37,778 nucleotides of DNA, taken from Clostridia bacterium (lineage in GTDB: Bacteria; Bacillota; Clostridia; Christensenellales; Aristaeellaceae). The stretch lies in the NCBI GenBank assembly GCA_017410445.1, contig JAFQQU010000192.1, positions 1-37,778 of the forward strand, read 5' to 3'. Shown in pieces: positions 5,772 to 35,238 of the stretch. The notes beneath the pieces were generated by a model, which worked only from the letters and a program-made list of their open reading frames with translations, ran no database searches and was not told where the DNA came from. The translations under genes were made by a program, and so were the position numbers. Numbering within the stretch: position 1 is the stretch's first letter; every line of letters begins with the position of its first letter.

Positions 5772-8312
5772 TTATCTGCATTCGTCCTGCGGCATGGAAA
5801 AATAATGCGTGCCGCCGGAAATTGTTTTCGTCTCGCGGCCGAGGGTGACTGTGGCCGTTACGCCGGCGGGCAGGTCGATGTAGAGATGCACGCCGCCGTA
5901 GCGTTTGACCCACTTCACGTTCAGCGGGCCCTTGCAGGTATCGAGATTTCCCTGCGCGCTCATGAGCTTTTCAGGCATCTTCGGTGCGATTTCGAGCGTC
6001 TCAAAGCCCGCGCCGGTCGGCCTGACGCCCAGAAGAGAGGTATACAGCCAGCTGTCCGCCGCGCCGTACATCGGGTGGTTGTGGGAATTCATGCCCGGCT
6101 GCTTCTTGAGCTCGAAGCGCTCCCAGACGGTGGTGGCCTCCTGCTGAATCATGTATCCGAAGGAGGGATATTCCTCGCGGGTCATGAGGGCATAGGCGTC
6201 GTCGATGTAGCCGTATTCGGAGAGCATGTCCAGCATGTAGCGGGTGCAGAGGTTGCCGGTGGTGAAGCGGTAGCCGCGGGATACGAGGTCGTCGCGCATG
6301 AGCTTTGCGGCCCGCTGCCGGTCGCCCTCGGGGATGATCTTAAGCCACAGCGCGAACGCCTGACAGGCCTGCGAGCCGGTCGCCATCCTCGCAGAGGCGG
6401 GGTCGTACCATTTTTTAAGCATGGCGGCCTTGATCTTTCCGGCCAGCGTATCGTATTCCCGTGCGGCTTCCTCTCTGCCCAGCAGGCGCGCAAATTTCGC
6501 CAGCAGCGTGCAGTTGTAGTAGGAATAGCCGGTGGACATGAATACGCCGGGCGTGACGACCGATTTCGCGCCGTCGTTTCCTTCGCAGGCGTAGGCCGGG
6601 CCGGCCCAGTCGCCGTAGTAGGAGTAGTTTACGATATAGTCGTCGCTGTTGGCAAGCAGGCAGTTTTCCCACGCGGCGAAGCCGTCGAAGTTTTCCCTGA
6701 TGGTTTCAAGGTCTCCGTTGTGCAGGTAGTTCTGCCATGCGGCGACCAGATAGCTCGAGCAGACCGGGTCCGCAGGGAAGGAGCCGAACACCGCATAGGG
6801 CACGGTGCAGGAAATCGCGCCGTCCTCCCGCTGGCCGGCCCGGATATCGCGGACGATCTTCCGGAACATCGCGCCGGTTTCGAAGTTGAAGGGCGTTTCC
6901 TCAAAGCGCACGGTGGCGTCGTTCATCCAGCCCATGCGCTCGTCGCGCTGCGGGCAGTCGGTGAGGATCGAGTGCATATTGTCGCGCTCTGTCATGAGCA
7001 CATTCTGGTGAATGGCGTTGATGAGCGCGCTGCCCGAGCGGAAGGCGGTTTTCTTGTCGATGTTTGTGTACATCTGAACGGCATAAATGTCGTCCCTGCC
7101 GGGCTTGAAGCCGGTGATTTCGGCATAGCGGAAGCCGTGATAGGTGAAGGGCGGCTGATAGCAGTCCGCGTCGCCGCAGGAGATGTAGGTATCGGTGCAT
7201 TCAGCCTTTCTGAGCGGTGCGGTGTAGAGCGTGCCGTCCTCGTCGAGGAATTCGGCGTGGCGGATGGTGACCTCGGTTCCCTTGGGCAGCTCGGGAATGT
7301 CCAGCCGGACGACGCCCGCGATGTTCTGGCCGAAATCGACGATCCACTTGCCGGGAACGGGCTGGGAAATGCTGAGCGGCGGGAACAGGCGCAGCTCGCG
7401 GATGGAAGGGATGAGCATGGGCTTCAGCTCGCCGCCCGGGGCGTCCGCCAGACGGACGGGATTCAAGTCCTCGCCGTAATCCGGCATGTTCCAGCCGAAG
7501 ATTTCCTGCCGGGCGTCGTAGGCCGTGCCGTCAAAGACCGAGCAGGATGTGATGGGGCCATAGGTCCATGTCCAGCTTTCGTCGGTGGCGATGGTTTCCT
7601 CCGTGCCGTCCTCATAGGCGATTTTCAGCATCAGAATGAGCTGCTTGCCGCCAAAGAAGCGGGGCTTGGCGTAGCTTGCGGTGTTGATTCTGGTGCGCCG
7701 CCAGCCGCCGCCGAGAACGACGCCGATGCAGTTGGGGCCGTCATGGAGCCGATGCTCCCGGTCCACGCAGACGGCATACTGGCAGAGGCGGGTATAGTCG
7801 GTCGTAGGCGGATCGAGCAGCGTTTCGTCCAGCGTATGGCCGTTTAAGTACAGCTCCTGATAGCCGAGGCCGCAGGCGTATACCGCCGCCGAGCGAACGG
7901 GCTTGTCGATGGTGAATTCCTTTCTCAGATAGACGGCCGCCTCGCCGGCGTCCTCATCGGCTGTGATCCATTCGGCGTCCCATTCGATATCGCCGAGGTA
8001 GAAATATTCCTCTTCTTCGCCCTCGCGGCCCAGGCTGTCGCGCAGAATGACGCAGACGGTCAGCGCTTCGCCGCGCGGCCAGCCGGATTCGGTCAGGCGG
8101 CATTCCTGCCGCGCGGTTTCGACCCAGCCGCTGTCGAAGAGGTCGTTGAGCCGCCGGTCGGACACAATCACCCGGTATGCGGCCTGATTTGCTTCGGGCC
8201 GGTCGGTATCAAGCGCCCACGAAAACACCATCTCGCCGCCCTCGGCGATGTGCTCGCGGTCATAATGGCCCATTCTCTGCCGGTTGACACGGATATCGGA
8301 CGGTTTCAGCAT
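5772..8312 (-). CDS. GH78 alpha-L-rhamnosidase
   Basis: This 846-residue enzyme removes terminal alpha-L-rhamnose from glycosides or pectic oligosaccharides by inversion. Domain order fits GH78: an N-terminal Ig-like domain (residues about 1-110), a jelly-roll substrate-binding domain (about 115-300, VYLRKEFTIDKPVRSA and YACGLGYQELYLNG), an (alpha/alpha)6 catalytic barrel (about 400-750) and a C-terminal beta domain. The barrel holds the hallmark DCPQRDERMGW near residue 452 with the presumed general acid, and TTVWER with the presumed base. There is no signal peptide, so it acts in the cytoplasm on imported oligosaccharides. AAGGAG lies 8 bases before the ATG. It follows the DUF1294 gene by 42 bases and may be cotranscribed. 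A second GH78 gene is at 23121. Confidence 0.93.
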   Translation of the reverse strand: MLKPSDIRVNRQRMGHYDREHIAEGGEMVFSWALDTDRPEANQAAYRVIVSDRRLNDLFDSGWVETARQECRLTESGWPRGEALTVCVILRDSLGREGEEEEYFYLGDIEWDAEWITADEDAGEAAVYLRKEFTIDKPVRSAAVYACGLGYQELYLNGHTLDETLLDPPTTDYTRLCQYAVCVDREHRLHDGPNCIGVVLGGGWRRTRINTASYAKPRFFGGKQLILMLKIAYEDGTEETIATDESWTWTYGPITSCSVFDGTAYDARQEIFGWNMPDYGEDLNPVRLADAPGGELKPMLIPSIRELRLFPPLSISQPVPGKWIVDFGQNIAGVVRLDIPELPKGTEVTIRHAEFLDEDGTLYTAPLRKAECTDTYISCGDADCYQPPFTYHGFRYAEITGFKPGRDDIYAVQMYTNIDKKTAFRSGSALINAIHQNVLMTERDNMHSILTDCPQRDERMGWMNDATVRFEETPFNFETGAMFRKIVRDIRAGQREDGAISCTVPYAVFGSFPADPVCSSYLVAAWQNYLHNGDLETIRENFDGFAAWENCLLANSDDYIVNYSYYGDWAGPAYACEGNDGAKSVVTPGVFMSTGYSYYNCTLLAKFARLLGREEAAREYDTLAGKIKAAMLKKWYDPASARMATGSQACQAFALWLKIIPEGDRQRAAKLMRDDLVSRGYRFTTGNLCTRYMLDMLSEYGYIDDAYALMTREEYPSFGYMIQQEATTVWERFELKKQPGMNSHNHPMYGAADSWLYTSLLGVRPTGAGFETLEIAPKMPEKLMSAQGNLDTCKGPLNVKWVKRYGGVHLYIDLPAGVTATVTLGRETKTISGGTHYFSMPQDECR

Positions 8313-8821: not shown

Positions 8822-8869
8822 GGATTCTGGAAGACAATGGCATGCAATGAATGAAAGAAGGTGCAGAAA

Positions 8870-11740
8870 TTGCCTGAATCCAATATGAAGCGGCTGATCT
8901 GCCTGATGCTCTGTATCGCCCTGATGCTGAGCTCGGTCGTTTTCGCTGAAACCTATACCGGAAAAGATGCGGTCTATCAGCCGCTTAAGTATGAGACGAA
9001 GGACAGCGACGAGGTGCGCGCCATGCAGGAGCGCCTCAAGGAGCTGGGCTTTTTCGACGCCGGAATCACCGGCGGCTACTACGGAGTGACGGCGGACGCC
9101 GTGCGCGAATTCCAGAAGGCGGCCGGCCTTGAGGTCAACCGCAAGCTGGCCTCCGGCGAAATGCTGGCGCTGCTCTTCTCCGACGACGCTCCTCTGGCGG
9201 ATGGCGCTCAGCCGACCGCGGCGCCCGTTCCCACGGCTACGCCCGACGTCGTTCTGTCCTATGGACTCAAGAACAACGAAAAGGTGCGTCAGGTGCAGAA
9301 GCGTCTTGCCGAGCTCGGCTATTTTGCCAGCAACGTCACCGGCAATTATTTTGACGTCACCCGCGTTGCGGTAGAGGCTTTCCAGGCGAAGGCGGGCCTC
9401 GAGGTCAACGGCAAGGTGATCGATTCGAAGACCATGGAGCTGCTCTTCTCCGAGTCCGCGCCCGCGGCAAACTGGTCTCCCTCCGCGACGGCTACGCCCA
9501 TGCCCACGGCGACGCCCAGACCGGTCTATACCACCGTGCCCAACGCGACGCCCCGCCCCGCGCTGTTCTACGGCAGCAGCAGCGGCGATGCGGTCATCGA
9601 AATGCAGCTGCGCCTGAAGGAACTGGGCTTCCTGACGAGCACCGCAACCGGCGGCTACTGGTCCATTACCGAGAAGGCGGTTGCAGCGTTCCAGCTGGCG
9701 GCCGGCCTGCCGGTCAACGGACGCGTGGCCGATACGTATACGCTGGAGAAGCTGTTCTCGAACGATGCGCCTGTCGGCCCGGACTGGAAAGAGGAAGTCA
9801 ATCAGCTGATGCCGCTGTATTTCGGCGTATCCGGCGATCTTCAGGTACGCGACATGCAGGACAGGCTGCGCGAGCTGGGCTATTTCAGCGATGTATCCAC
9901 CGGCAGCTACTATCTGAAGACCTCCGATGCAGTCGCGGAGTTCCAGAAAGCGGTCGGCCTGCCCGTACGGGGCTATATCGCCAGCGTCGAGATGCTGGAA
10001 ATCCTGTATTCCGAAAACGCGCCGAAGTATGATCCCGACCGGCCCGAGGCGACGCTGCGTCCCACGGAGACGCCTGAGCCCACGGCTACGTCCGCGCCCA
10101 CGGTCACGCCTGAGCCCACGGCCACGCCCGTGCCTACCGTGGAGCCGACCAAGGCGCCCTACCGGGAGCTGAAATACGGCATGAGCGCGGACGACGAGGT
10201 ATACGCCATGCAGGTCCGCCTGCGCGAGCTGGGCTACCTCAACACCTCGCCCACCGGCGGCTACTGGTCCATGACCGTGACTGCGGTCAAGGCCTTTTTG
10301 AAGGATCAGGGCCTGAGCGGCGACGGAAAGACCATGACCGCTCAGATGCTTGCTTTGCTCTATCAGGAGAAGCAGCCCGAGGAGGACGAGCCCGGCGAGG
10401 ACGAGACCGTTCTCTATGAAACTCTGACCTACGGCATGGAGAAAAACGCGGGCGTCAAGGCCATGCAGGCCCGCCTGCGCGCGCTGGGTTATTTCAACGA
10501 ATCCGCCACCGGCAATTACTACAGCCTGACGGCCAGAGCGGTTGAAGCGTTCCAGCTGGCGGCCGGCCTGCCGATCAACGGCGACGCCGTATCGCCCGAG
10601 ATGCAGGCGCTGCTCTTCAGCGCCGATGCTCCGACGGCGGACGGCGGCGTACTGCCTCCCGAGGACGGCGGCAGCAGCGGCGGCTCCGATCTGCCGGCGC
10701 TGGATACCAGCTATCAGGCGCTTAAATACGGCATGGAGAACAGCGATCTGGTCCGCATGATGCAGAAAAAGCTCAAGGAGCGCGGCTTCTTCAGCGGCAG
10801 CCCGACCGGCGGCTATTACGACGCCACCCGCAAGGCGGTCGCCTCGTTCCAGACCTATGCCAAGCTGCCCGTCAACGGCAAGGAAGCCTCCTCCCTGACG
10901 CTGGCCTATCTGTATTACACCGGCGATCTGGATGCGCTGATTGCCAACGGCGGCGTTGTTCCGCCGAGCAACGGAACGCCTGAATATGATCCCGATAAGT
11001 ATCAGAATGCTCAGACCGATACTCTCCTGAGCAAGGGCGACAAGGGCGAGCAGGTCAATCTGCTGATCATGCGTCTGACCGAGCTGGGCTATCTGACCGA
11101 TACCAAGCCGACCTACTACGATTCGGACGTCCATGACGCGGTCAAGTGGTTCCAGAACACCAACCTGCTGGATTCGGACGGCATCGCGGGCCCCAAGACG
11201 CTCAAGACGCTCTACAGCAAATCCGCCATGTCCGCCGACGAGGGCATGAAGGACAACGTGTCCTCCGGCGAACCGGAAGAGGTGGAAGGCGAGAAGATCG
11301 AGGTTTCCATCGGCACGGTGCTCAATATCGACTGGTTCTCCAGCGAGGGCGACCGTTACTATAACCGCCGGACCGGCGCGATGTGCGACGGCGCGGTGGT
11401 CATCATCACCGATGTGGACAGCGGCCTGTCCTTCCGCGCCAAGCGCGGCGGCGGCTACAACCATGCCGACATGGAGCCGCTGACGGCCTACGACACCTGG
11501 GTCATGTATCAGATTTACGACGAGGAATGGACCTGGAAGCGCCACGCGGTGTATATCACCCTGGAGAACGGAATCTCCCTGGCGGCCTCCATCAACGGCA
11601 TGCCCCACGGCTCCGGCTCCATTTCCAACAACAACTTCGACGGCCATTTCTGCGCCCACTTCCTCAACAGCCGTACCCACGGCACCGACAGAGTGGACCC
11701 GGATCATCAGGCCGCGGTCAAGAAGGCGGCAAGCCGCTAA
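8870..11740 (+). CDS. Secreted protein with eight peptidoglycan-binding repeats and a His/Cys C-terminal domain
   Basis: This 956-residue exported wall protein has a signal peptide ending near VVFA. Eight PG_binding_1-type repeats of about 70 residues follow (approximately 36-108, 127-200, 230-301, 311-385, 431-504, 516-587, 614-685, 714-785). Each has the pattern V..MQ.RL.ELGYF...TG.Y...T..AV..FQ..AGL.VNG and ends LLFS. Pro/Thr-rich linkers separate several. The last 150 residues form a different domain with NHADMEPLTAYDT, NGMPHGSG and GHFCAHF (His913, His926, Cys928, His930). I know similar tails from other Firmicutes wall proteins but no assigned function; an enzymatic role is a hypothesis. 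TTG at 8870 best fits the AAGGTG site; GTG 8861 or ATG 8885 are alternatives. Confidence 0.88.
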   Translation: MPESNMKRLICLMLCIALMLSSVVFAETYTGKDAVYQPLKYETKDSDEVRAMQERLKELGFFDAGITGGYYGVTADAVREFQKAAGLEVNRKLASGEMLALLFSDDAPLADGAQPTAAPVPTATPDVVLSYGLKNNEKVRQVQKRLAELGYFASNVTGNYFDVTRVAVEAFQAKAGLEVNGKVIDSKTMELLFSESAPAANWSPSATATPMPTATPRPVYTTVPNATPRPALFYGSSSGDAVIEMQLRLKELGFLTSTATGGYWSITEKAVAAFQLAAGLPVNGRVADTYTLEKLFSNDAPVGPDWKEEVNQLMPLYFGVSGDLQVRDMQDRLRELGYFSDVSTGSYYLKTSDAVAEFQKAVGLPVRGYIASVEMLEILYSENAPKYDPDRPEATLRPTETPEPTATSAPTVTPEPTATPVPTVEPTKAPYRELKYGMSADDEVYAMQVRLRELGYLNTSPTGGYWSMTVTAVKAFLKDQGLSGDGKTMTAQMLALLYQEKQPEEDEPGEDETVLYETLTYGMEKNAGVKAMQARLRALGYFNESATGNYYSLTARAVEAFQLAAGLPINGDAVSPEMQALLFSADAPTADGGVLPPEDGGSSGGSDLPALDTSYQALKYGMENSDLVRMMQKKLKERGFFSGSPTGGYYDATRKAVASFQTYAKLPVNGKEASSLTLAYLYYTGDLDALIANGGVVPPSNGTPEYDPDKYQNAQTDTLLSKGDKGEQVNLLIMRLTELGYLTDTKPTYYDSDVHDAVKWFQNTNLLDSDGIAGPKTLKTLYSKSAMSADEGMKDNVSSGEPEEVEGEKIEVSIGTVLNIDWFSSEGDRYYNRRTGAMCDGAVVIITDVDSGLSFRAKRGGGYNHADMEPLTAYDTWVMYQIYDEEWTWKRHAVYITLENGISLAASINGMPHGSGSISNNNFDGHFCAHFLNSRTHGTDRVDPDHQAAVKKAASR

Positions 11741-20319: not shown

Positions 20320-20403
20320 AAAACCGGAAAGGTTTTTGAAATGAACTGATCGGTATATGGATGCGTCTAACGATATACTGACTGAAAGAAAGGTGGATGC
20401 GTT

Positions 20404-21996
20404 TTGGCTGAATTCTGGACGGAATACGGACAGGCAATCCTCAGCAATCTGGGCGAGTTCTCTGTCTATTTTATCATTGTTGTGATCTTTATTGTCGGTC
20501 TGATCAAGTGCATTCTTCCGGTTCTGAACAGCCGCGCTTCCCTGAGAAAGGCGACGCGCAGGCTGCGCCACAGCGAGGACCGCGATATCTGGCAGGACAA
20601 GGCGTTTCTGGGCAAGAAGAGTGTATTGACTGTTCACTGGAGCGCATACCTCAACAGCCGCCTCTTCGCCAACGACGAATACCACAACGCTTCCCCGCTG
20701 GACGACTACATCAACGAGGACACCGCCATTTACGAGCCGGGCTTTGCGAAGCTGGGCGACAGCCTGCCGAGCCTGATGGTCTCGCTGGGCTTCCTCGGAA
20801 CGATGCTGGGTATCGTTCAGGGTCTGGCCGGCATTGACCTGTCCAACGCGGACACGACGCTGGCCGCCATCTCCAGCATGATCGGCGGCATGAAGTATGC
20901 CTTCTGGACCTCGATCGTCGGCGTCGTCGCGTCGCTGATGTTTCAGGTGCTTCAGCGCTGGGTGCAGAACAGCACCGGTCACGCGCTGACCGCCTTCCAG
21001 GACGCCATGCGCACCGAGGCGCGCGTCGTCACCGTCGACCCGCTGACTCAGATTACGATTTATCAGCAGGAGCAGACCGCGCAGCTGCAGGCCATCGCCG
21101 AGGAGGTGACCCTGCACATGGCCGACCGGCTGGGCAAGACGCTTGATATGGCGCTCACGCCCATGCGCGAGAGCCTCGACAACTTCATCATGGCCACCAC
21201 GCAGGAGCAGCTCAAGGGCGTCGACCTGATCGTTCAGAAATTCGTTCAGCGGATGGACGAGTCCCTGAGCGGCCAGTTCCAGGCGCTGGGCATTGTGCTG
21301 CAGGAGAACTGCGTGTGGTATCGCCAGACGCAGGAGACCCTGCGCGCCGCAGTGGACGGCATCACCCGCATGAGCCGCGATATCATCGAGATTCAGCAGA
21401 TGTCCGAATCGCTGACTTCCCGTTTCGACGGGTATCTGAACCATCTGGGCGCGGCGCAGCAGCAGGTTGAGGACGGCTACGGAAAGGTCGCCGCAAACAT
21501 CAAGAACATGGAGCTGGTTTCCCGCCAGCAGGCCAATTATATCGCTCAGATCGGCCAGATGCAGGCCGACTTCATGCGCGAGGTCAATTCCTTCCAGACC
21601 CGCATGGACAGCTTCATCAAGGCGTATGTAGAGAATACCAACCTGTCCACCGGCGCGCTTCAGAAGGTGGCGGCCGAGCTCCGCAAGAGCGGCGAGGACA
21701 TGAAGAAGGGCGGAGATCAGCTGATCGCCTCCCACGAGGCCTTCGCCAAGGGCGTTCATCAGGAGCTGCAGCAGGCGTTCGGCGAGTTCGACGCGGGCGT
21801 CGGCGAGACGCTGGAGCGCATGAACAAGACCATCTCCGCCATCGGCGAGGGCATGGCGGACATTCCTCAGTACATGGGCGAGGCTTCCGCGGAGTATGCC
21901 GAGCAGATGGCCCAGCTCATTGAGTACATGAAGGAAACCCGCAAGATGCTGGACAACGCCCTGAACCGGATGAATATGTACGGAGGAGCACAGTAA
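20404..21996 (+). CDS. ZorA-like MotA/TolQ/ExbB proton-channel subunit with long cytoplasmic tail
   Basis: This 530-residue membrane protein has three hydrophobic segments (about 20-41, 121-143, 165-185). The MotA/TolQ/ExbB core spans the last two: LPSLMVSLGFLGTMLGIVQG and MKYAFWTSIVGVVASLMF. The remaining 340 residues form a helical, coiled-coil-like cytoplasmic tail. The topology with a long tail matches ZorA of Zorya systems more than MotA or ExbB. With the OmpA-domain partner downstream it should form an ion-driven rotary complex. The start is TTG at 20404, 8 bases after AAAGGTGG. It overlaps the partner gene by one base (TAATG). No ZorC, ZorD or ZorE lies nearby, so a defence role is not established; a wall-related role is equally possible. 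Confidence 0.85.
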   Translation: MAEFWTEYGQAILSNLGEFSVYFIIVVIFIVGLIKCILPVLNSRASLRKATRRLRHSEDRDIWQDKAFLGKKSVLTVHWSAYLNSRLFANDEYHNASPLDDYINEDTAIYEPGFAKLGDSLPSLMVSLGFLGTMLGIVQGLAGIDLSNADTTLAAISSMIGGMKYAFWTSIVGVVASLMFQVLQRWVQNSTGHALTAFQDAMRTEARVVTVDPLTQITIYQQEQTAQLQAIAEEVTLHMADRLGKTLDMALTPMRESLDNFIMATTQEQLKGVDLIVQKFVQRMDESLSGQFQALGIVLQENCVWYRQTQETLRAAVDGITRMSRDIIEIQQMSESLTSRFDGYLNHLGAAQQQVEDGYGKVAANIKNMELVSRQQANYIAQIGQMQADFMREVNSFQTRMDSFIKAYVENTNLSTGALQKVAAELRKSGEDMKKGGDQLIASHEAFAKGVHQELQQAFGEFDAGVGETLERMNKTISAIGEGMADIPQYMGEASAEYAEQMAQLIEYMKETRKMLDNALNRMNMYGGAQ

Positions 21997-23105
21997 TGCG
22001 TTACGGACGAAAGGGGAAGAACAGAGCAGGCAACGGCGACAGCAGCTTCTGGATCTGTTTCTCCGATCTGATGAGCGCGCTGATGCTGGTGTTCGTTCTG
22101 GTCATGTTCTACAGCGTATATCAGTATTTCGACATGCTGGAGGTCAAAACCGCCGAGCTGCTGAGGCAGAGCGGCATTCTGGATCAGCAGGCCGCGCAGC
22201 TGACGCTCTCTCAGGCGGAACTGAAGGAAAAGGAAGCACAGCTCAACGCCCAGCAGGCGACGCTGGACGAGCAGGCTGCGCAGCTGGACGAAAAAAACGC
22301 CCGCCTCGAGGAGCAGACCGCGCAGCTGGATGAAAAGAACGCCCAGCTGACGGAGCAGAGCGACAAGCTGACCGCGCAGGAGACCGCCATTCTCGCCCAG
22401 CAGGCGCAGATGCTTCTGCAGGAGCAGACGCTTCAGGCCCTTCAGGAAAAGCTGGAGGAGCAGGAGGCGGCGCTCAGCAGCGCGCAGATCAGCCTGGACG
22501 AGGCACTTCAGAGCCAGCAGGCCCAGCAGGCGCTGCTCAACGCCCAGCAGGAGAAGCTCGATAAGCTGGTCGGCGTGCGCACGGAGATCATCGAGGACCT
22601 GATGGAAGCGCTGATGCAGTCCAACATCACCGGTGCGAACGTAGACGCTTCCGGCGCGATCGTATTCAGCAGCGAGATGATGTTCTCCACCGGCTCCAGC
22701 AAGCTCAACAACACCGGCAAGGACTTCCTCAACCGGTTCCTGCCCAACTACCTGCGCGTTCTGATGAGCGACGAGTATGCAAAAAACGTCAGCCAGATCA
22801 TCATCGAGGGCCATACCGATACCACCGGCAGCTTCCTGACCAACGTAGAGCTCTCTCAGGACCGTGCGCTGGGCGTATTGAGATACATCATGAGCGACGA
22901 ATTCACCGGCATCACCCGGGCGGAGAAGGAACGGCTCTCCGAGGTCGTTACGGCAAACGGACGCGCGTACAGCGATCCCATCTACAAAGAGGACGGCACG
23001 ATTGATATGTCCGCTTCGCGCCGCGTTGTCATCAAGTTCCGCCTGAACGACGAGGACATGGTAACAGAGATGCTGGACGTGCTCAAAAATATGGAAATGA
23101 ATTAA
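21996..23105 (+). CDS. ZorB-like MotB/OmpA-family stator subunit with Gln-rich stalk
   Basis: This 369-residue protein has one membrane segment (about 25-42). It is preceded by FWICFSDLMSALMLVFVLVM, whose Asp24 matches the proton-binding Asp of MotB/ZorB proteins. A Gln/Ala/Leu/Glu-rich coiled coil of about 140 residues follows (46-188, repeated QLDEKNA and LDEQAAQ units). An OmpA-type peptidoglycan-binding domain ends the protein (about 215-360): IIEGHTDTTGS, ELSQDRALGVL and SASRRVVIKF. The domain should hold the complex to the wall while the ZorA-like partner forms the channel. The long stalk is unusual and may span the thick wall region of a Gram-positive cell. The two genes overlap by one base. 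Confidence 0.87.
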   Translation: MRYGRKGKNRAGNGDSSFWICFSDLMSALMLVFVLVMFYSVYQYFDMLEVKTAELLRQSGILDQQAAQLTLSQAELKEKEAQLNAQQATLDEQAAQLDEKNARLEEQTAQLDEKNAQLTEQSDKLTAQETAILAQQAQMLLQEQTLQALQEKLEEQEAALSSAQISLDEALQSQQAQQALLNAQQEKLDKLVGVRTEIIEDLMEALMQSNITGANVDASGAIVFSSEMMFSTGSSKLNNTGKDFLNRFLPNYLRVLMSDEYAKNVSQIIIEGHTDTTGSFLTNVELSQDRALGVLRYIMSDEFTGITRAEKERLSEVVTANGRAYSDPIYKEDGTIDMSASRRVVIKFRLNDEDMVTEMLDVLKNMEMN

Positions 23106-23120: not shown

Positions 23121-25781
23121 ATGCTTCAGGCAATCAATCTGACCTGTGAATCCCAGATCAATCCGCTGGGACTGGATATCACCACGCCGCGGTTCAGCTG
23201 GCGGATTACTTCAAAAGAATACAACACGCTGCAGAGCGCCTACCGCATTCAGGTGTATCCGGAAGGCGAAGAAAAGCCGTGCTGGGACAGCGGCCGAATC
23301 AGCGGACGCGCCAGCGTGCTCATTCCCTACGAGGGCCCGGCGCTGCGCGCCCAGACCCGGTATTTCTGGCAGGTGCGCGTGTGGGACCAGAAGGGCCGCG
23401 ACTCCGGATGGAGCGAGCGCGCGTGGTGGGAAACCGGCCTGATGAAGAGCAGCGGCTTCCAGGCCAGCTGGATCAGCAACCCCAACAAGGGCGATATCAG
23501 CGTGATGCAGCCGGTCCCGATGTTCAGGAAAAAGTTTGAAATCAAGAAAGATATCGTCCGCGCCCGGATGTATGCCTCGGCGCTGGGCGTGTATACCCTC
23601 TATATCAACGGAAAGCCGGTCAGCGAGGATCTGCTCAGCCCCGGCTACACCAGTTACAACAACCGCATCCAGTATCAGACGTGGGACGTCACCGATCTTC
23701 TGAAGACCGGCGAAAACGCGGTGGCCGCGTCCGTCGGCGACGGCTGGTACCGGAGCTATCTGGGCGGCGGCGGAACCGGCAGGAACCGCTACGGCCAGCG
23801 CCTCGGCCTGATCTGCCAGATGCACATCATGTCGAGCGACGGCACGGAGACCGTCATCCGCACCGACGACAGCTGGAAGGCGTATGAGGACAGCCCCATC
23901 CGCTATTCCGATATCTACATGGGCGTCTGCTACGACGCGCGCAAGGAGCAGGACGGCTGGAACGACGCCGGCTTCGACGATTCCGCCTGGCAGAAGGCCG
24001 TCTGCCTGACCCACAGCAAATCCGTCCTGACGGCGCAGCTCTCCCAGCCCGTCCGCCGCCAGATGGCGCTCAAGCCCATCCGCATCATCACCACGCCCAA
24101 GGGCGAAACGGTGCTGGACATGGGCCAGAACATGGTGGGCTGGCTGAAGTTCACCGTCCGCGGCGCGGCTGGACACACGGTCACTGTGCATCACGGCGAG
24201 GTGCTGGACAAGGACGGCAATTTCTACAACGACAACTACCGCGACGCCAAAAGCGAGATCATCTACACCCTCAGGGGCGAGGAAAGCGAAACCTTTGAGC
24301 CGATGCATACCTTCTTCGGCTTCCGCTATGCGAAGCTGATCGACTGGCCGTGCGAGGTCCGCGCGGAGGACTTCGAGGGCGTTGTCGTCTGCTCGGATAT
24401 GGAGATCACCTCGGGCTTTGAGTGTTCGGACGAGCGCGTCAATCAGCTGTTCTCCAACATTCAGTGGGGCCAGAGGGGCAATTTCGTAGACATCCCGACC
24501 GACTGCCCGCAGCGCGACGAGCGCGTCGGCTGGACGGGCGACTGTCAGGCCTTTGCGCGCACCGCGTGCATCAATATGGATTCGCATCTGGTGCTGGCCA
24601 AGTGGCTGGGCGATCTGGCGATCGATCAGGCGGCGGACGGCGGCATTCCGCATATTGTGCCGCGCGTGTTCAGCAAGCCCCAGAATTTCGGCTCGGCCGC
24701 ATGGGGCGACGCGGCAACCATCGTTCCGTGGACGCTGTATCAGTGCTACGGCGACAAGGACCTGCTGCGCCGTCAGTATCCCAGCATGCGCCGCTGGCTG
24801 GACTATATCGATTCCCAGTCCACCGCGTATCTGTGGGACAGCGGAAAGCATTTCGGCGACTGGCTGGCGCTGGACGCCTATGAGGGCAGCTATGTCGGCG
24901 CGACCGATAAGGCGCTGATCGCAACCGCCTTCTCTGCCTATTCCACCCGGCTGACCATGCAGGCTGCCGAGGTGCTGGGCTACGAGAAGGACAAGCAGGA
25001 GCTTTCGCAGCTGCTCAAGAAAATCATCCGCGCATACCGGCGCGAATTCATTACGCCGAACGGACGGCTGGCCGTCCGCACGCAGACGGCGTATGTACTG
25101 ACGCTGTATTTCGATCTGGCCGAGGAGGCCGACCGCCCGCGCATGGCGAGGGAGCTGGTCGAGCTGATTGCGGAGCGCGGCGGACACCTGTCCACCGGCT
25201 TTGTCGGAACGCCGTATCTGTGTCTGGCGCTGACTGCGGCCGGCGCGCACGACGTTGCGGGTCAGCTGCTGATGAAGAGCGATTATCCCTCTTGGCTGTA
25301 TCCGATCACCAAGGGCGCGACCACCATGTGGGAGCACTGGGACGGCATCAAGCCGGACGGCAGCTTCTGGAGCCGGGATATGAACTCGTATAACCACTAT
25401 GCCTACGGCGCGATCGGCGAATGGATGATGCGCGCGCTGGCCGGCATCGACATGATCAAGCCGGCATACGGCGAGATTCTGCTGCATCCCAGACCCATCG
25501 AGGAGCTTTCCTTCGTATCGGCCTGGCAGAAGACGCCCTACGGCAAGGTGCGCTGCGAATGGCGCATCGAGGGCGGGCTGCACAGCGTGCACTGCACCGT
25601 TCCGGCGGGAACGACGGCGGTTCTGGTGCTGGAGCAGGCGGACTTGTATCAGGTGAGCTCGGGCGAGAAGCTGCTGACCGCGCAGCCGGGCGTTATCCGC
25701 GCGTGGCAGTCGGACGACGACGTCATGGTCGAGTTGGGCTCGGGCAAATATCAGTTTAAGTGGCGGGTACAGAACGGATGA
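23121..25781 (+). CDS. GH78 alpha-L-rhamnosidase (second copy)
   Basis: This 886-residue cytoplasmic enzyme cleaves terminal alpha-L-rhamnose. It starts with NLTCESQINPLGLDITTPRF, the standard opening of GH78 proteins, followed by an Ig-like domain (1-110), a jelly-roll domain (about 115-330, MYASALGVYTLYINGKPVS), a second beta domain, the catalytic barrel (about 430-770) and a C-terminal beta domain. DCPQRDERVGW begins at residue 461 and carries the presumed acid; TTMWEHWDG and SYNHYAYGAIGEWM follow. No signal peptide is present. It is clearly distinct from the GH78 at 5772, having the fuller architecture. It starts 15 bases after the ZorB-like gene and overlaps the next gene by 4 bases, so it belongs to the same transcript. 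Confidence 0.95.
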   Translation: MLQAINLTCESQINPLGLDITTPRFSWRITSKEYNTLQSAYRIQVYPEGEEKPCWDSGRISGRASVLIPYEGPALRAQTRYFWQVRVWDQKGRDSGWSERAWWETGLMKSSGFQASWISNPNKGDISVMQPVPMFRKKFEIKKDIVRARMYASALGVYTLYINGKPVSEDLLSPGYTSYNNRIQYQTWDVTDLLKTGENAVAASVGDGWYRSYLGGGGTGRNRYGQRLGLICQMHIMSSDGTETVIRTDDSWKAYEDSPIRYSDIYMGVCYDARKEQDGWNDAGFDDSAWQKAVCLTHSKSVLTAQLSQPVRRQMALKPIRIITTPKGETVLDMGQNMVGWLKFTVRGAAGHTVTVHHGEVLDKDGNFYNDNYRDAKSEIIYTLRGEESETFEPMHTFFGFRYAKLIDWPCEVRAEDFEGVVVCSDMEITSGFECSDERVNQLFSNIQWGQRGNFVDIPTDCPQRDERVGWTGDCQAFARTACINMDSHLVLAKWLGDLAIDQAADGGIPHIVPRVFSKPQNFGSAAWGDAATIVPWTLYQCYGDKDLLRRQYPSMRRWLDYIDSQSTAYLWDSGKHFGDWLALDAYEGSYVGATDKALIATAFSAYSTRLTMQAAEVLGYEKDKQELSQLLKKIIRAYRREFITPNGRLAVRTQTAYVLTLYFDLAEEADRPRMARELVELIAERGGHLSTGFVGTPYLCLALTAAGAHDVAGQLLMKSDYPSWLYPITKGATTMWEHWDGIKPDGSFWSRDMNSYNHYAYGAIGEWMMRALAGIDMIKPAYGEILLHPRPIEELSFVSAWQKTPYGKVRCEWRIEGGLHSVHCTVPAGTTAVLVLEQADLYQVSSGEKLLTAQPGVIRAWQSDDDVMVELGSGKYQFKWRVQNG

Positions 25782-26440
25782 GGGTGAAGACATACCGGGA
25801 ATTCCTCGCGGCGCTTGACGAGCTGGGCTTTCTCCTCTTCGGCGGCGGAAGCACGGGCATGCTGAAGCTCTCGGACATTACGGAGCCGGAGGCATGGTTT
25901 CGCGGCGGCGAGGACGACCCGTGGCACTGGCGGGAAATGCTGTGCGAGCGGAAGGACGGAGTATACGCCCGCGTGCTGGGCGGACAGACCTTCCTGATCT
26001 CGTGGAAGTGGTATCCGGCGTTTCTGGCGGCCTACCGGGACTGCGATACCCTGGACGAGCGGTATGAGGCCGGAATGGTGAGCGCGGCGGTGTGGCGGAT
26101 GCGGAACCTGTTTGAGGAGAAGCATGCGCTGGCCAAGCATGAGCTGAGCGCCCGATTCACCAAATCGGAGGTTACGAAAGGGCTTAACGTGCTTCAGCGG
26201 GAAATGTATATCACGATTTCCGGCGAGGTGCAGAAGCTGTCGGTGGATTTCAGGCCGGTCGGCTGGCCGTCGATGGAGTTCACCCGGGTGGAGGACTGGG
26301 CGCCGGAGGCGCTGGCCGAATCGGAAAAGCTGAACCCGAAGGAAATGCGGAAGGCCATCCGGCGCAGAGCGGGCGAGATCAGCCCGCAGGCAGACAAAGA
26401 GGCGCTGAACCGGCTGTTCGAGGAATGGGGCGTTGAGTAA
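25778..26440 (+). CDS. AlkZ-related protein
   Basis: This 220-residue protein resembles proteins annotated as AlkZ-related in Clostridia. The marks are PEAWFRGGEDDPWHWREML (37-55) and GVYARVLGGQTFLISWKWYPAF (61-82). A winged-helix-like stretch follows (about 115-150, KHELSARFTKSEVTKGLNVLQ). AlkZ itself excises DNA interstrand crosslinks through a QxQ/QxD motif, which I do not find here, so glycosylase activity is not supported. The family may bind DNA or another ligand. Its ATG overlaps the rhamnosidase stop (ATGA) and its stop directly abuts the next GTG, so translation is probably coupled to both neighbours. Confidence 0.65.
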   Translation: MRVKTYREFLAALDELGFLLFGGGSTGMLKLSDITEPEAWFRGGEDDPWHWREMLCERKDGVYARVLGGQTFLISWKWYPAFLAAYRDCDTLDERYEAGMVSAAVWRMRNLFEEKHALAKHELSARFTKSEVTKGLNVLQREMYITISGEVQKLSVDFRPVGWPSMEFTRVEDWAPEALAESEKLNPKEMRKAIRRRAGEISPQADKEALNRLFEEWGVE

Positions 26441-27001
26441 GTGAAGTATATCCGAAGACTTTTGTGGTTTGTGGCGACGCGGCTGGTGATGATCAGCGCG
26501 GTCGTCGGGCTGCTTACGCTGGTGTTCTATCTGGCGATGAACACGGCGAATATCTATCTTTTGCTGAGCGACGGCATGAAGCTGCGCGCCGAGGTCATCC
26601 TCACGCGCGACAACGCCGAGGAAATGCCCAGCTTCTTTACCGACGAATTCCTGCTGGACGACGAGACGCTGGCCATCGGCCTGTCGGAGCAGTCGCCCTA
26701 TGTGGATTACAGGATCGATTCGTTCAATTATGAGCTGAGCATGGAAAGCATGTGGGCCTGGCCGTGGGACAACACGGCGACGGCCACCATCGTCGAGAAG
26801 GTTCCGCGCATCGTAGGCTCTGTGCGCACGAACAGCCAGTCCCTGCTCAAGGCCGGGCTGATTTCGGCCACCCCGCCGCCGTGGTACGGCGGACGATACA
26901 CCGTCACGCTGCAGCGAATCGGCGGCCAGTGGAAGATCGCGGGTCTGAGACAGACTCAGCTGATCATCGAGCCGACGGCCGTTCCTTCGCAGCCCAAATA
27001 A
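26441..27001 (+). CDS. Single-pass membrane protein of unknown function
   Basis: I do not recognise this 186-residue protein. It has one hydrophobic segment (about 12-37) after an Arg/Lys-rich start, so the remaining 150 residues should lie outside the membrane. The outer part contains a Trp-rich turn (MWAWPWDN near 104-111), mixed beta strands and a WKIAGLRQTQL strand near the end. This fits a small NTF2- or cystatin-like domain, but that is a guess. The GTG start touches the preceding stop codon with no gap, so it relies on translational coupling. dusB follows after 27 bases. Confidence 0.75.
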   Translation: MKYIRRLLWFVATRLVMISAVVGLLTLVFYLAMNTANIYLLLSDGMKLRAEVILTRDNAEEMPSFFTDEFLLDDETLAIGLSEQSPYVDYRIDSFNYELSMESMWAWPWDNTATATIVEKVPRIVGSVRTNSQSLLKAGLISATPPPWYGGRYTVTLQRIGGQWKIAGLRQTQLIIEPTAVPSQPK

Positions 27002-27028
27002 GCGCGCACGGAATGAGGAGAAATAGCT

Positions 27029-28021
27029 ATGCAGATCGGTCAGCTGGCCATGCCGGCCGGCGCGGCGCTGGCGCCCATGGCGGGCGTAACGGACATGCCC
27101 ATGCGCATCCTCTGCTTTGAGCAGGGCGCCGCGTGGGCGGTGACGGAGATGATCAGCGCCAAAGGATACCTCTATGCGCCCGAGAACACCCGGGCCATCG
27201 AAGAGCTGCTCCGGCGCGACCCCGCAGAGGGCCCGCTGGGGCTTCAGCTATTCGGCAAGGAGCCGGAATTCATGGCGGAGGCGGCGGCGAAGCTCTCCGG
27301 ACAGGGATTTGCCTTCATCGACATCAATATGGGCTGTCCGGCGCACCGGATTGTCGGAAACGGCGAGGGATCGGCGCTGATGAAGACGCCTGATCTGGCC
27401 GGAAGAATCATCGAGGCGACGGTGAAGGCGTCTTCCGTGCCTGTGACGGTCAAAATGCGGGCCGGGTGGGACGAGACGTGCATCAACGCCGTCGAGCTGT
27501 CGGAAATCGCGGAGCAGGCGGGCGCGGCCGCGCTCACCATTCACCCCCGCACCCGGGTGCAGCAGTATTCCGGCCATTCGGACTGGGAGATCATCCGCAG
27601 GGTGAAGGAGCGGGTGCATATCCCGGTCATCGGAAACGGAGACGTGACCTCCGCGGACGAATACGAGCGCATGATCCGGGAGACCGGCTGCGACGCGGTC
27701 GCCATCGGCCGGGGCGCGCAGGGAAACCCGTGGATCTTTGCGGAAATCAAAGCCCGCATCGAGGGCAGGCCCTATGAAAAGCCCGCCTTTCGCGAGAAGG
27801 TGGAAGCGGCCATCCGCCACGGCAGAATGCAGGCCGAATACATCGGCGAATCGGGTGCGGCGCGCGAAATGCGCAAGCACCTGATCTGGTATCTGCAGGG
27901 CATGAAGGGCTGCGCGCGCGTGCGCGAACAGCTGGGAAAGATCAACACGCTGGACGAGATGAACCGCGTGCTTCTGGAGTATGCGGACAGACTGCAGGAA
28001 AGGCAGGAAAGCCATGAGTAA
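27029..28021 (+). CDS. dusB: tRNA-dihydrouridine synthase DusB
   Basis: This 330-residue FMN enzyme reduces uridines in the tRNA D-loop. It shows the Dus TIM-barrel motifs in order: APMAGVTDMPMR (15-26), TEMISAKG (39-46), INMGCPAHRIVGNGEGSALM (99-118) with catalytic Cys103, VKMRAGWDE, IHPRTRVQQYSGHSDW, VIGNGDVTS and AIGRGAQGNPW. A C-terminal helical tRNA-binding domain follows. A GAGGAG site lies before the ATG. The last 8 bases overlap the next gene. Confidence 0.96.
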   Translation: MQIGQLAMPAGAALAPMAGVTDMPMRILCFEQGAAWAVTEMISAKGYLYAPENTRAIEELLRRDPAEGPLGLQLFGKEPEFMAEAAAKLSGQGFAFIDINMGCPAHRIVGNGEGSALMKTPDLAGRIIEATVKASSVPVTVKMRAGWDETCINAVELSEIAEQAGAAALTIHPRTRVQQYSGHSDWEIIRRVKERVHIPVIGNGDVTSADEYERMIRETGCDAVAIGRGAQGNPWIFAEIKARIEGRPYEKPAFREKVEAAIRHGRMQAEYIGESGAAREMRKHLIWYLQGMKGCARVREQLGKINTLDEMNRVLLEYADRLQERQESHE

Positions 28022-33222: not shown

Positions 33223-35238
33223 TTAGTCAATCACCTTCGCCCCGTCCTTTACCCACAGCGGCATCTCGAAGAAATTGCAGGTATCCTTCATCCACCTGCC
33301 GCCCTGAACGGTGCGGCCGTCCAGGAGATGCGTCCATTTGCCCTCGGGCAGGTAGTAGGATACGTCTCCTTCTTTATTGAAGACCGGCGCGACCAGCAAG
33401 CTGTCGCCCAGCATATACTGCCGGTCGAGATAATCGCAGGCCGGGTCGTCCGGGAAGGCCATGAACATCGGCCGCACCATGGGAACGCCCTCTTCATGGG
33501 CAATGCGCGCCATCTTCATGAGATAGGGCATCATCTTCTGCTTGAGCTTTACGAAGAAGCGCAGAACGTCAACAGCTTCTTCGTCGAACAGCCACGGCAC
33601 GCGGTAGGAGGACGAGCCGTGCAGGCGGCTGTGCGTGGACATGAGGCCGAAGGCGCACCATCTCTTGTATACGTCCGCCGGCGCGGTCGATTCGAAGCCG
33701 CTGATATCGTGGCTCCAGAAGCCGAAGCCCGAGGCCGAGAGCGAAAGCCCGGCGCGCAGGGTCTCGGCCATGGATACGTAGGTCGCCGAGTTGTCGCCGC
33801 CCCAGTGTACGGGCATCTTCTGGCCGCCGGCGGTCGCGCTGCGGGCAAAGACCACGGCCTCGCCCTTGCCGCGCTCCTCCTCGAGCAAGGAGAAGACCAC
33901 CTCGTTGTAGAGCTGGGTGTAGTAATTGTGCATGCGGATGGGGTCGCTGCCGTCGTGCCAGGCGATGTCCTTTACCGGGATGCGCTCGCCGAAGTCGGTC
34001 TTGAAGCAGTCGACGCCCTGCGCTACCAGCCTGCGCAGGTGGGATTTGTACCATTCGCAGGCGGCGGGGTTGGTGAAGTCCACAATGCCCATGCCGGCCT
34101 GCCACAGGTCGGTCTGCCAGACGGAGCCGTCGGTCTTTCGGACGAGATAGCCGTTTTCAGCCGCCTCGTCGAACAGGGAGGAGGCCTGCGCGATGTACGG
34201 GTTGATCCACACGCAGATATGCAGCCCCCGCTCCTTGTATCGCTTCAGCATGCCCTCGGGGTCCGGAAAGACCGCGCCGTCCCATTCGAAATCGCACCAG
34301 TGGAAGGGCTTCATCCAGCAGCAGTCAAAATGGAATACGGAAAGCGGGATATCGCGCTGCTCCATGCCCTCGATGAACGAGGTGACGGTTTTCTCGTCGT
34401 AGTTGGTGGTGAAGGAGGTGGAGAGCCACAGCCCGAACGACCATTCCGGCGGCATGGCGGGCCGTCCGGTGAGCGCAGTGTAGCGGGATACGACGTCCGC
34501 GGGCGCGGGGCCGGAGATGAGGTAATAGATCATGGATTCGTCCTCGACGGCGAACTGAACGCGCTCGACGTTCTCGCTGCCGACCTCATACATGACTTCG
34601 CCCGGGCTGTCTACGAACACGCCGTAGCCGCGGTTGGTCAGGTAAAAGGGGATGTTCTTATACGCCATCTCGGAGCAGCTGCCGCCGTCGCCTTGCCACA
34701 TGTCGATGGCCTGACCGTTGCGGACGAACGGGGTGAAGCGTTCGCCGAGGCCGTATACGCATTCGCCCACGCCCAGCTCGAGCGCCTCCTGAATGTATTT
34801 CTTGCCGGAAGCGGTATCGGTGAAGTGCGCCATGGCGCGGAAGCCGGTCGAGGTGAGGACCTTTCCGTCCTGAATGAATTCAATGCCCCAGTTCCAGCCG
34901 CCCTTCTTCACGCGGGCGGTGAGCGGGCCGGAGATATAGTCGATATATCCGTCGGTCTCGGTGATTTCGACGGACACGGGCTCTCTGTTCAGCTCGAAAC
35001 GCGGGTCGTGTTTCGCCTGTCCTTTGTGATGGGCGATCGTCACGCCGATGATTCCCTCCCGCGGGGAGGAGAGGGTGATGAAGAGCGCATTGGTCAGCGT
35101 GCCGCCGCGGTTTTCGACATGGGAGCCGGGGGCGAGGATATGAAGCTCGTCGCCCTTGCGGTAGGATTCATAGTATTCGACGGCGTAAACCGGCTGAATA
35201 TTGGGCTTGATCATCCAGTGGCCGAGGTTGAATTTCAT
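33223..35238 (-). CDS. yicI: GH31 alpha-xylosidase (YicI-like), short C-terminus
   Basis: This 671-residue enzyme removes alpha-xylose, for example from xyloglucan oligosaccharides, by a retaining mechanism. It shows an N-terminal beta-sandwich (1-250), then the catalytic barrel with PPEWSFGLWLSTSF, HFDCCWMKPFHWCDFEWD, the nucleophile near Asp415 in KTDFGERIP, SGFGFWSHDISGFE with the region of the acid, and HSRLHGSSSYRVPW. These fit YicI rather than general alpha-glucosidases. The protein ends just after PLWVKDGAKV, where YicI continues with a distal beta domain of about 100 residues. There is no signal peptide, so it acts in the cytoplasm. A GGGAGGG site and a strong promoter precede it. Confidence 0.92.
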   Translation of the reverse strand: MKFNLGHWMIKPNIQPVYAVEYYESYRKGDELHILAPGSHVENRGGTLTNALFITLSSPREGIIGVTIAHHKGQAKHDPRFELNREPVSVEITETDGYIDYISGPLTARVKKGGWNWGIEFIQDGKVLTSTGFRAMAHFTDTASGKKYIQEALELGVGECVYGLGERFTPFVRNGQAIDMWQGDGGSCSEMAYKNIPFYLTNRGYGVFVDSPGEVMYEVGSENVERVQFAVEDESMIYYLISGPAPADVVSRYTALTGRPAMPPEWSFGLWLSTSFTTNYDEKTVTSFIEGMEQRDIPLSVFHFDCCWMKPFHWCDFEWDGAVFPDPEGMLKRYKERGLHICVWINPYIAQASSLFDEAAENGYLVRKTDGSVWQTDLWQAGMGIVDFTNPAACEWYKSHLRRLVAQGVDCFKTDFGERIPVKDIAWHDGSDPIRMHNYYTQLYNEVVFSLLEEERGKGEAVVFARSATAGGQKMPVHWGGDNSATYVSMAETLRAGLSLSASGFGFWSHDISGFESTAPADVYKRWCAFGLMSTHSRLHGSSSYRVPWLFDEEAVDVLRFFVKLKQKMMPYLMKMARIAHEEGVPMVRPMFMAFPDDPACDYLDRQYMLGDSLLVAPVFNKEGDVSYYLPEGKWTHLLDGRTVQGGRWMKDTCNFFEMPLWVKDGAKVID

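What the first reader, a model, noticed from the sequence alone, without database searches (positions are those of the whole stretch)
20404..23105. Orphan ZorA/ZorB-like motor pair without Zorya effectors
The first protein has three membrane segments and a 340-residue helical tail, like ZorA. The second has the SDLMSAL motif with a proton-binding Asp and an OmpA domain, like ZorB. Zorya systems also need ZorC/D or ZorE. None is nearby: the next genes are a rhamnosidase, an AlkZ-related protein and a small membrane protein. The pair may drive a wall-linked process or be the sensor half of an undescribed system whose effectors are the AlkZ-related or membrane protein.
Basis: partly seen in the sequence, partly recalled or inferred. 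Interest (0 to 1): 0.72.

Follow-up and report, generated by a model that had tools for sequence, protein, structure and literature searches.

The report
Core Zorya-like motor, not phage defence
A gene pair that looks like the rotary motor of the Zorya anti-phage system turns out to be a single-copy, vertically inherited gene pair in nearly every genome of one family of single-membrane gut Clostridia, so it is probably an undescribed housekeeping motor anchored to the cell wall rather than the sensor of a defence system.

Summary
Window 20404-21996 encodes a ZorA-like protein (3 TM, about 320-residue helical tail); 21996-23105 encodes a ZorB-like protein (TM Asp24, 147-residue coiled linker, OmpA domain). 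No ZorC/D/E was found among the window proteins scanned, and the searched genome has no ZorD match.

The defence reading is not supported. The pair occurs in 141/150 genomes of the window's family (47/50 genera; 83/86 good-quality genomes) and is usually the only MotA/TolQ/ExbB-type protein in the cell. Its neighbourhood changed state once on the AB tree, which points to vertical inheritance. True Zorya loci (with ZorC/D or ZorE) are rare in the class. Their short-linker ZorB proteins group apart, but with modest support.

The rhamnosidase is shared only with the nearest genus, and AlkZ was seen only in the window. The small membrane protein (NTF2-like) occurs in families that lack the pair. 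A different protein tracks the pair: a single-TM beta-sandwich protein found only in this family, usually directly after ZorB. In the window's genome it lies on another contig.

Best reading: an undescribed wall-anchored 5:2 ion motor, core to a family without an outer-membrane Omp85, sharing ancestry with Zorya. Function is inferred, not shown.

The parts
20390..20396 (+). Shine-Dalgarno AAGGTGG, 7 nt before the TTG start of A
   Evidence: read from sequence
20404..21996 (+). A subunit (ZorA-like, 530 aa): TM1 within residues 2-56, TM2 115-142, TM3 149-205, helical cytoplasmic tail about 213-527
21996..23105 (+). B subunit (ZorB-like, 369 aa), overlapping A's stop codon by 1 nt
22065..22067 (+). 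codon of Asp24 of B, the ion-binding aspartate, invariant in alignment A1
   Evidence: 36/36; motif in 160/161 loci; equivalent to ZorB D24 of PMC11890865
22134..22571 (+). coiled-coil linker of B (about 147 residues from the end of the TM to the OmpA domain; in the sampled Zorya loci with a measurable linker the longest is 40)
22569..23102 (+). OmpA-like, presumed peptidoglycan-binding domain of B (alignment A3)
   Evidence: Pfam PF00691; alignment
23121..25781 (+). alpha-L-rhamnosidase GH78: found behind B mainly here and in the nearest genus; not part of the system
25760..26440 (+). AlkZ-related protein (PF24741): not a conserved neighbour; not part of the system
26441..27001 (+). single-TM NTF2/SnoaL-like exported protein (alignment A4): next to AB in one subclade, but widespread in families without AB; neighbour, probably not a dedicated component

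Best explanation
A and B form a 5:2 ion-driven rotary membrane motor of the ZorAB type. It is a core, vertically inherited component of a family of Omp85-less (monoderm) gut Clostridia, and not a phage-defence module. Ion flow at Asp24 of B against the Ser/Thr ring of A would turn the A pentamer around a B dimer. A roughly 20 nm coiled linker lets B's OmpA domain reach and grip the peptidoglycan, and A's helical tail passes motion or conformational change to a cytosolic partner. A single-TM beta-sandwich protein (alignments A5/A6; in the window's genome at G000:C279:9527-9988) is the lineage-specific third component and would act at the outer face. The most likely job is a wall-coupled housekeeping process such as sensing wall or envelope state, or coordinating wall growth and division, analogous to Tol-Pal but without an outer membrane. 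Shown by sequence or model: architecture, key residues, usual single copy, near-universality, one change of linkage on the tree, co-occurrence of the beta-sandwich protein. Inferred: rotation, wall binding, the cytosolic partner, and the physiological role.
For: B in 141/150 family genomes, 83/86 of good quality. PF01618 in 140/150, exactly one match in 131 of these, so usually the cell's only motor of this superfamily. Adjacency state (A4 or A5 behind B) changes once on the AB tree of 78 loci, which indicates vertical inheritance. Asp24 motif in 160/161 loci. Omp85 in 0/60 family genomes while 7 of 14 control genomes ring. B linker median 133 aa against at most 40 in the sampled Zorya loci. 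A model's best folds are ZorA. The beta-sandwich protein (model pLDDT 95.8) directly follows B in 42/81 family loci, is in 130/150 family genomes, and has no credible match in 141 other genomes of the order.
Against: No experiment. Most genomes are incomplete metagenome assemblies. A few well-conserved defence genes can also be widespread. Monophyly of the family's B against Zorya is weakly supported (one clade in 52% of bootstrap trees). The tail model is low confidence. Co-absence of B and the beta-sandwich protein (6 genomes, Fisher p 1.8e-4) is partly caused by missing contigs, and one genus (g10) has B but no detectable beta-sandwich protein.
Confidence: 0.62

Rival explanations
1. A domesticated, fixed anti-phage system (a Zorya-like type): AB senses wall breach at phage DNA injection, and effectors are encoded elsewhere or the beta-sandwich protein serves as a new accessory.
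For: Fold and sequence closest to ZorAB. In Zorya, both the ZorB peptidoglycan-binding domain and the ZorA tail are required for defence (PMC11890865), and both parts are kept here.
Against: 94% of genomes, usually single copy, one change of linkage on the AB tree, unlike the patchy spread of Zorya. No ZorC/D/E/F/G beside it; in the family the ZorD profile matches only over part of its length, mainly the SNF2 helicase core. NCBIfam ZorA/ZorB cut-offs not reached.
Confidence: 0.17
2. A force-generating motor for surface translocation, pilus/adhesin work or secretion (like AglRQS, SiiAB or GldLM) whose driven part is unlinked.
For: Other 5:2 motors drive gliding and secretion (listed in PMC12204202). 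One Clostridia pair (L222/L223) lies beside PilB/PilT-like genes.
Against: No pilus, gliding or secretion gene is a conserved neighbour in this family.
Confidence: 0.12
3. A decaying remnant of a Zorya locus that lost its effectors.
For: Pair without ZorC/D/E.
Against: Intact reading frames, invariant ion residue and OmpA core across about 50 genera; near-universal presence; tree grouping apart from effector-bearing Zorya.
Confidence: 0.02

Closest known systems
Zorya ZorAB core (types I and II; PDB 8qyd, 8vvn, 8vvi)
   Same: A fold best matched by ZorA; B's OmpA domain closest to PADLOC ZorB1 (2e-64); ion-binding Asp at position 24; long helical A tail.
   Different: No ZorC/D, ZorE or ZorF/G; coiled B linker about 100 residues longer than in the sampled Zorya; core and usually single-copy in a family rather than patchy; extra beta-sandwich membrane protein.
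Flagellar MotAB/PomAB stator
   Same: 5:2 motor superfamily, OmpA-type wall-binding domain on B.
   Different: A has three TM segments and only a weak fold match to MotA; E. coli MotA/MotB do not score with the A and B profiles; usually the only MotA-family gene in the genome, so no second flagellar stator.
TolQR / ExbBD / Tol-Pal
   Same: Three-TM A subunit; a wall-linked envelope role is proposed here by analogy.
   Different: B carries its own OmpA wall-binding domain, where E. coli TolR/ExbD are about 140 aa and have no match to that domain; the family has no Omp85; A is more ZorA-like.
Distant long-B ZorAB-like pairs of other Clostridia (CLO clade, families f37, f42, f44, f51, f52, f54, f67, f80)
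   Same: Same two-gene order, B with coiled linker and OmpA domain.
   Different: Separate clade with 100/100 support; 15 of 32 loci carry a TPR protein behind B instead.

Membership tests
Zorya anti-phage system | ZorA/ZorB motor core with Asp in the B TM helix and a wall-binding domain | tested here: met
Zorya anti-phage system | ZorC+ZorD, ZorE, or ZorF+ZorG encoded beside ZorAB | tested here: not met
   PADLOC and Pfam scans of window ORFs; conserved neighbours in 80 family loci. The same PADLOC scan found ZorC/D at L224 and L225 and ZorE at L228
Zorya anti-phage system | Reaches curated ZorA/ZorB family score cut-offs | tested here: not met
   NCBIfam ZorA_2 65.9 bits against cut-off 100; ZorB1 70.9 against 400
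Zorya anti-phage system | Falls within the clade of effector-bearing Zorya | tested here: inconclusive
   B tree: 26 of 28 family rows form one group apart from Zorya loci, but with 58/90 support; A tree unstable with long branches
Zorya anti-phage system | Patchy, mobile, strain-variable distribution | tested here: not met
   141/150 family genomes; one change of linkage state on the AB tree
Zorya anti-phage system | Confers protection against phages | not testable with these tools
   needs experiment
Flagellar MotAB stator | Four-TM MotA with rotor interface, flagellar gene context | tested here: not met
   three TM, fold, neighbours, single PF01618 match
TolQR/ExbBD with Tol-Pal/Ton | Outer membrane and short B without an OmpA domain | tested here: not met
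   Omp85 in 0/60 family genomes; B has OmpA domain
5:2 ion-driven rotary motor superfamily | A5B2 stoichiometry and ion-driven rotation | not tested
   inferred from homology; no complex predicted or measured

The most novel reading that the evidence does not exclude
A housekeeping branch of ZorAB-type rotary motors exists in monoderm Clostridia, working on the cell wall with a dedicated beta-sandwich membrane partner. Phage-defence Zorya would then be one offshoot of a wider, mostly non-defensive motor family, and current ZorA/ZorB profiles would misread core genes as defence genes.
Probability: 0.5. Interest if true: 0.78.

Novelty: new variant of a known kind. Interest (0 to 1): 0.62.

Why it matters
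If right, the usually sole MotA/TolQ/ExbB-type motor of a widespread gut-bacterial family is of the Zorya type and does an unknown envelope job in cells without an outer membrane. It would offer a possible starting stock for how a defence sensor was recruited from a wall-linked motor. It also warns that ZorA/ZorB hits, including strong PADLOC hits such as 2e-64 here, are not evidence of defence on their own.

Tried and rejected
1) AlkZ-related gene or rhamnosidase as effector: not conserved behind AB. 2) The NTF2-like small membrane protein as dedicated third component: first looked convincing (27 of 81 loci adjacent), but it is in 50 of 141 sampled order genomes outside the family, where AB is nearly absent, so adjacency is more likely chromosomal. 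3) The two third-gene families being homologous: hhalign probability 4.5%. 4) ZorD hidden elsewhere: family genomes match the ZorD profile over its helicase part (mostly positions about 495-945), not full length, B. subtilis rings too, and the window genome has none at 1e-20. 5) Full-length B profile for distant searches: coiled-coil noise, replaced by the OmpA-domain profile. 6) A-subunit tree: MotA, Nostoc and a few others are very long branches, so deep joins there are not used. 7) Fold search of the beta-sandwich protein: only generic Ig-like/adaptin-ear folds, best an uncharacterised C. difficile beta-sandwich protein at E 9e-4 with TM-score 0.27; no function read from it. 9) Prevalence of the Lachnospiraceae branch could not be tested. 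10) Held literature: no description of this pair found; the mBio 2025 MotAB phylogeny excluded Zorya.

Full report
Observation. The two ORFs are real and placed as stated. A (20404-21996, 530 aa) starts at TTG behind AAGGTGG. It matches MotA_ExbB (2.4e-6), PADLOC ZorA1 (6.6e-22) and solved ZorA chains. Its model shows three membrane helices with high confidence (block pLDDT mostly 88-98) and a helical tail with low confidence; the six best solved folds are all ZorA. B (21996-23105, 369 aa) has the TM Asp24, a long coiled linker and an OmpA domain. It matches PADLOC ZorB1 at 2e-64. NCBIfam's curated ZorA and ZorB cut-offs are not reached. PADLOC finds nothing above noise in the other window ORFs scanned.

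Distribution. With B as query, 141 of 150 genomes of the same family and 47 of 50 genera have a relative. In 78 of 80 fetched loci A and B are adjacent in the order A-B; one locus has them fused and one is a long paralog. PF01618 gives 140 of 150 genomes, and exactly one match in 131 of them, so the pair is usually the only motor of this superfamily in the cell. In the rest of the order B is nearly absent: three good matches among about 187 genomes. In 291 genomes of the class there are a few short ZorB proteins, a band of about 35 distant long B proteins, and MotB-like hits. Named relatives are gut Clostridia such as Ca. Limiplasma, Ca. Excrementavichristensenella and Ca. Onthenecus, plus some Lachnospiraceae including Butyrivibrio. 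The family itself is not named by the tools. Omp85 is absent from 60 of 60 family genomes while control genomes ring, so the family very probably lacks an outer membrane.

True Zorya as a control. The same methods find real Zorya in the class: L224 and L225 carry ZorC and ZorD behind ZorAB, and L228 carries ZorE. Plasmid Zorya II loci of E. coli, Vibrio and Psychrobacter were added. On the tree of the OmpA domain the family rows group apart from these loci, as does a Lachnospiraceae clade (98/95), all far from the CLO clade (100/100). Support for the family group is modest: 26 of 28 rows at 58/90, and one clade in 52% of bootstrap trees. So 'not inside Zorya' is likely, not proven.

Neighbours. 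Behind B lies one of two unrelated single-TM exported proteins in 69 of 81 family loci, mostly within 130 bp (unrelated). Type A4 (NTF2/SnoaL-like; the window's 26441-27001) and type A5 (beta-sandwich) are each single-copy in most family genomes (140 and 130 of 150). The state 'A4 behind B' or 'A5 behind B' changes once on the AB tree of 78 loci, which indicates vertical inheritance with one rearrangement. In the window's subclade A5 sits elsewhere, in most loci near polA (gene names there read from the sequences by eye); in the window's genome it is at G000:C279:9527-9988. In the order outside the family, A4 is in 50 of 141 genomes but A5 in none, apart from one noise hit at 8.7e-4 inside a 3163-aa frame. 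Hence A5, not A4, tracks AB. The A5 protein is modelled at pLDDT 95.8 as one TM helix plus a beta-sandwich; fold matches are generic. The rhamnosidase lies behind B mainly in the window and its nearest genus (two further loci, L064 and L086, also have a rhamnosidase downstream), and the AlkZ-related gene only in the window.

Mechanism. By established knowledge of ZorAB (PMC11890865) the conserved Asp of B packs against a Ser/Thr ring of A, the complex is 5:2, and both the wall-binding domain and the A tail are needed for function. These parts are all kept here. The linker is far longer (median 133 residues in the family, 147 in the window, at most 40 in the sampled Zorya loci). As a helix, 140 residues would span about 20 nm, enough by my estimate to cross the inner wall zone of a single-membrane cell. 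I infer a wall-anchored ion-driven motor that passes force or information between wall and cytosol. The physiological role (envelope sensing, wall growth or division) is inference.

Verdict. Limits: mostly draft metagenome genomes, a sample of 150 of a larger family, a low-confidence tail model, weak deep tree nodes, and no experiment.

Noticed in passing
L229-L261 (families f37, f42, f44, f46, f51, f52, f54, f67, f80): A separate clade of long-B ZorAB-like pairs in other Clostridia; 15 of 32 loci have a TPR-like protein of about 318 aa directly behind B, a second possible motor-plus-partner operon.
   Followed up: partly
L222:7134-14386, L223: ZorAB-like pair with short B between a shikimate-dehydrogenase-like gene and PilB/PilT-like genes; the 402-aa gene directly behind B has no PADLOC match.
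   Followed up: partly
L111:9483-11651: A and B fused into a single 722-aa reading frame.
   Followed up: no
L107:16805-18748, L110:8062-10491: Long second B paralogs (647 and 809 aa) in some family genomes.
   Followed up: no
window 8861-11740: 959-aa protein with at least eight PG_binding_1 repeats.
   Followed up: no
window 5772-8312: Second GH78 alpha-L-rhamnosidase on the minus strand; a GH31 enzyme lies at 33223-35238.
   Followed up: no
L267:9332-10006 (G000:C279): In the window's subclade the beta-sandwich partner gene is unlinked from AB and sits in most loci near polA and a dephospho-CoA-kinase-like gene.
   Followed up: partly
window 26441-28021: NTF2-like exported protein directly upstream of dusB; the NTF2-like family is common in the order independent of AB.
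   Followed up: partly
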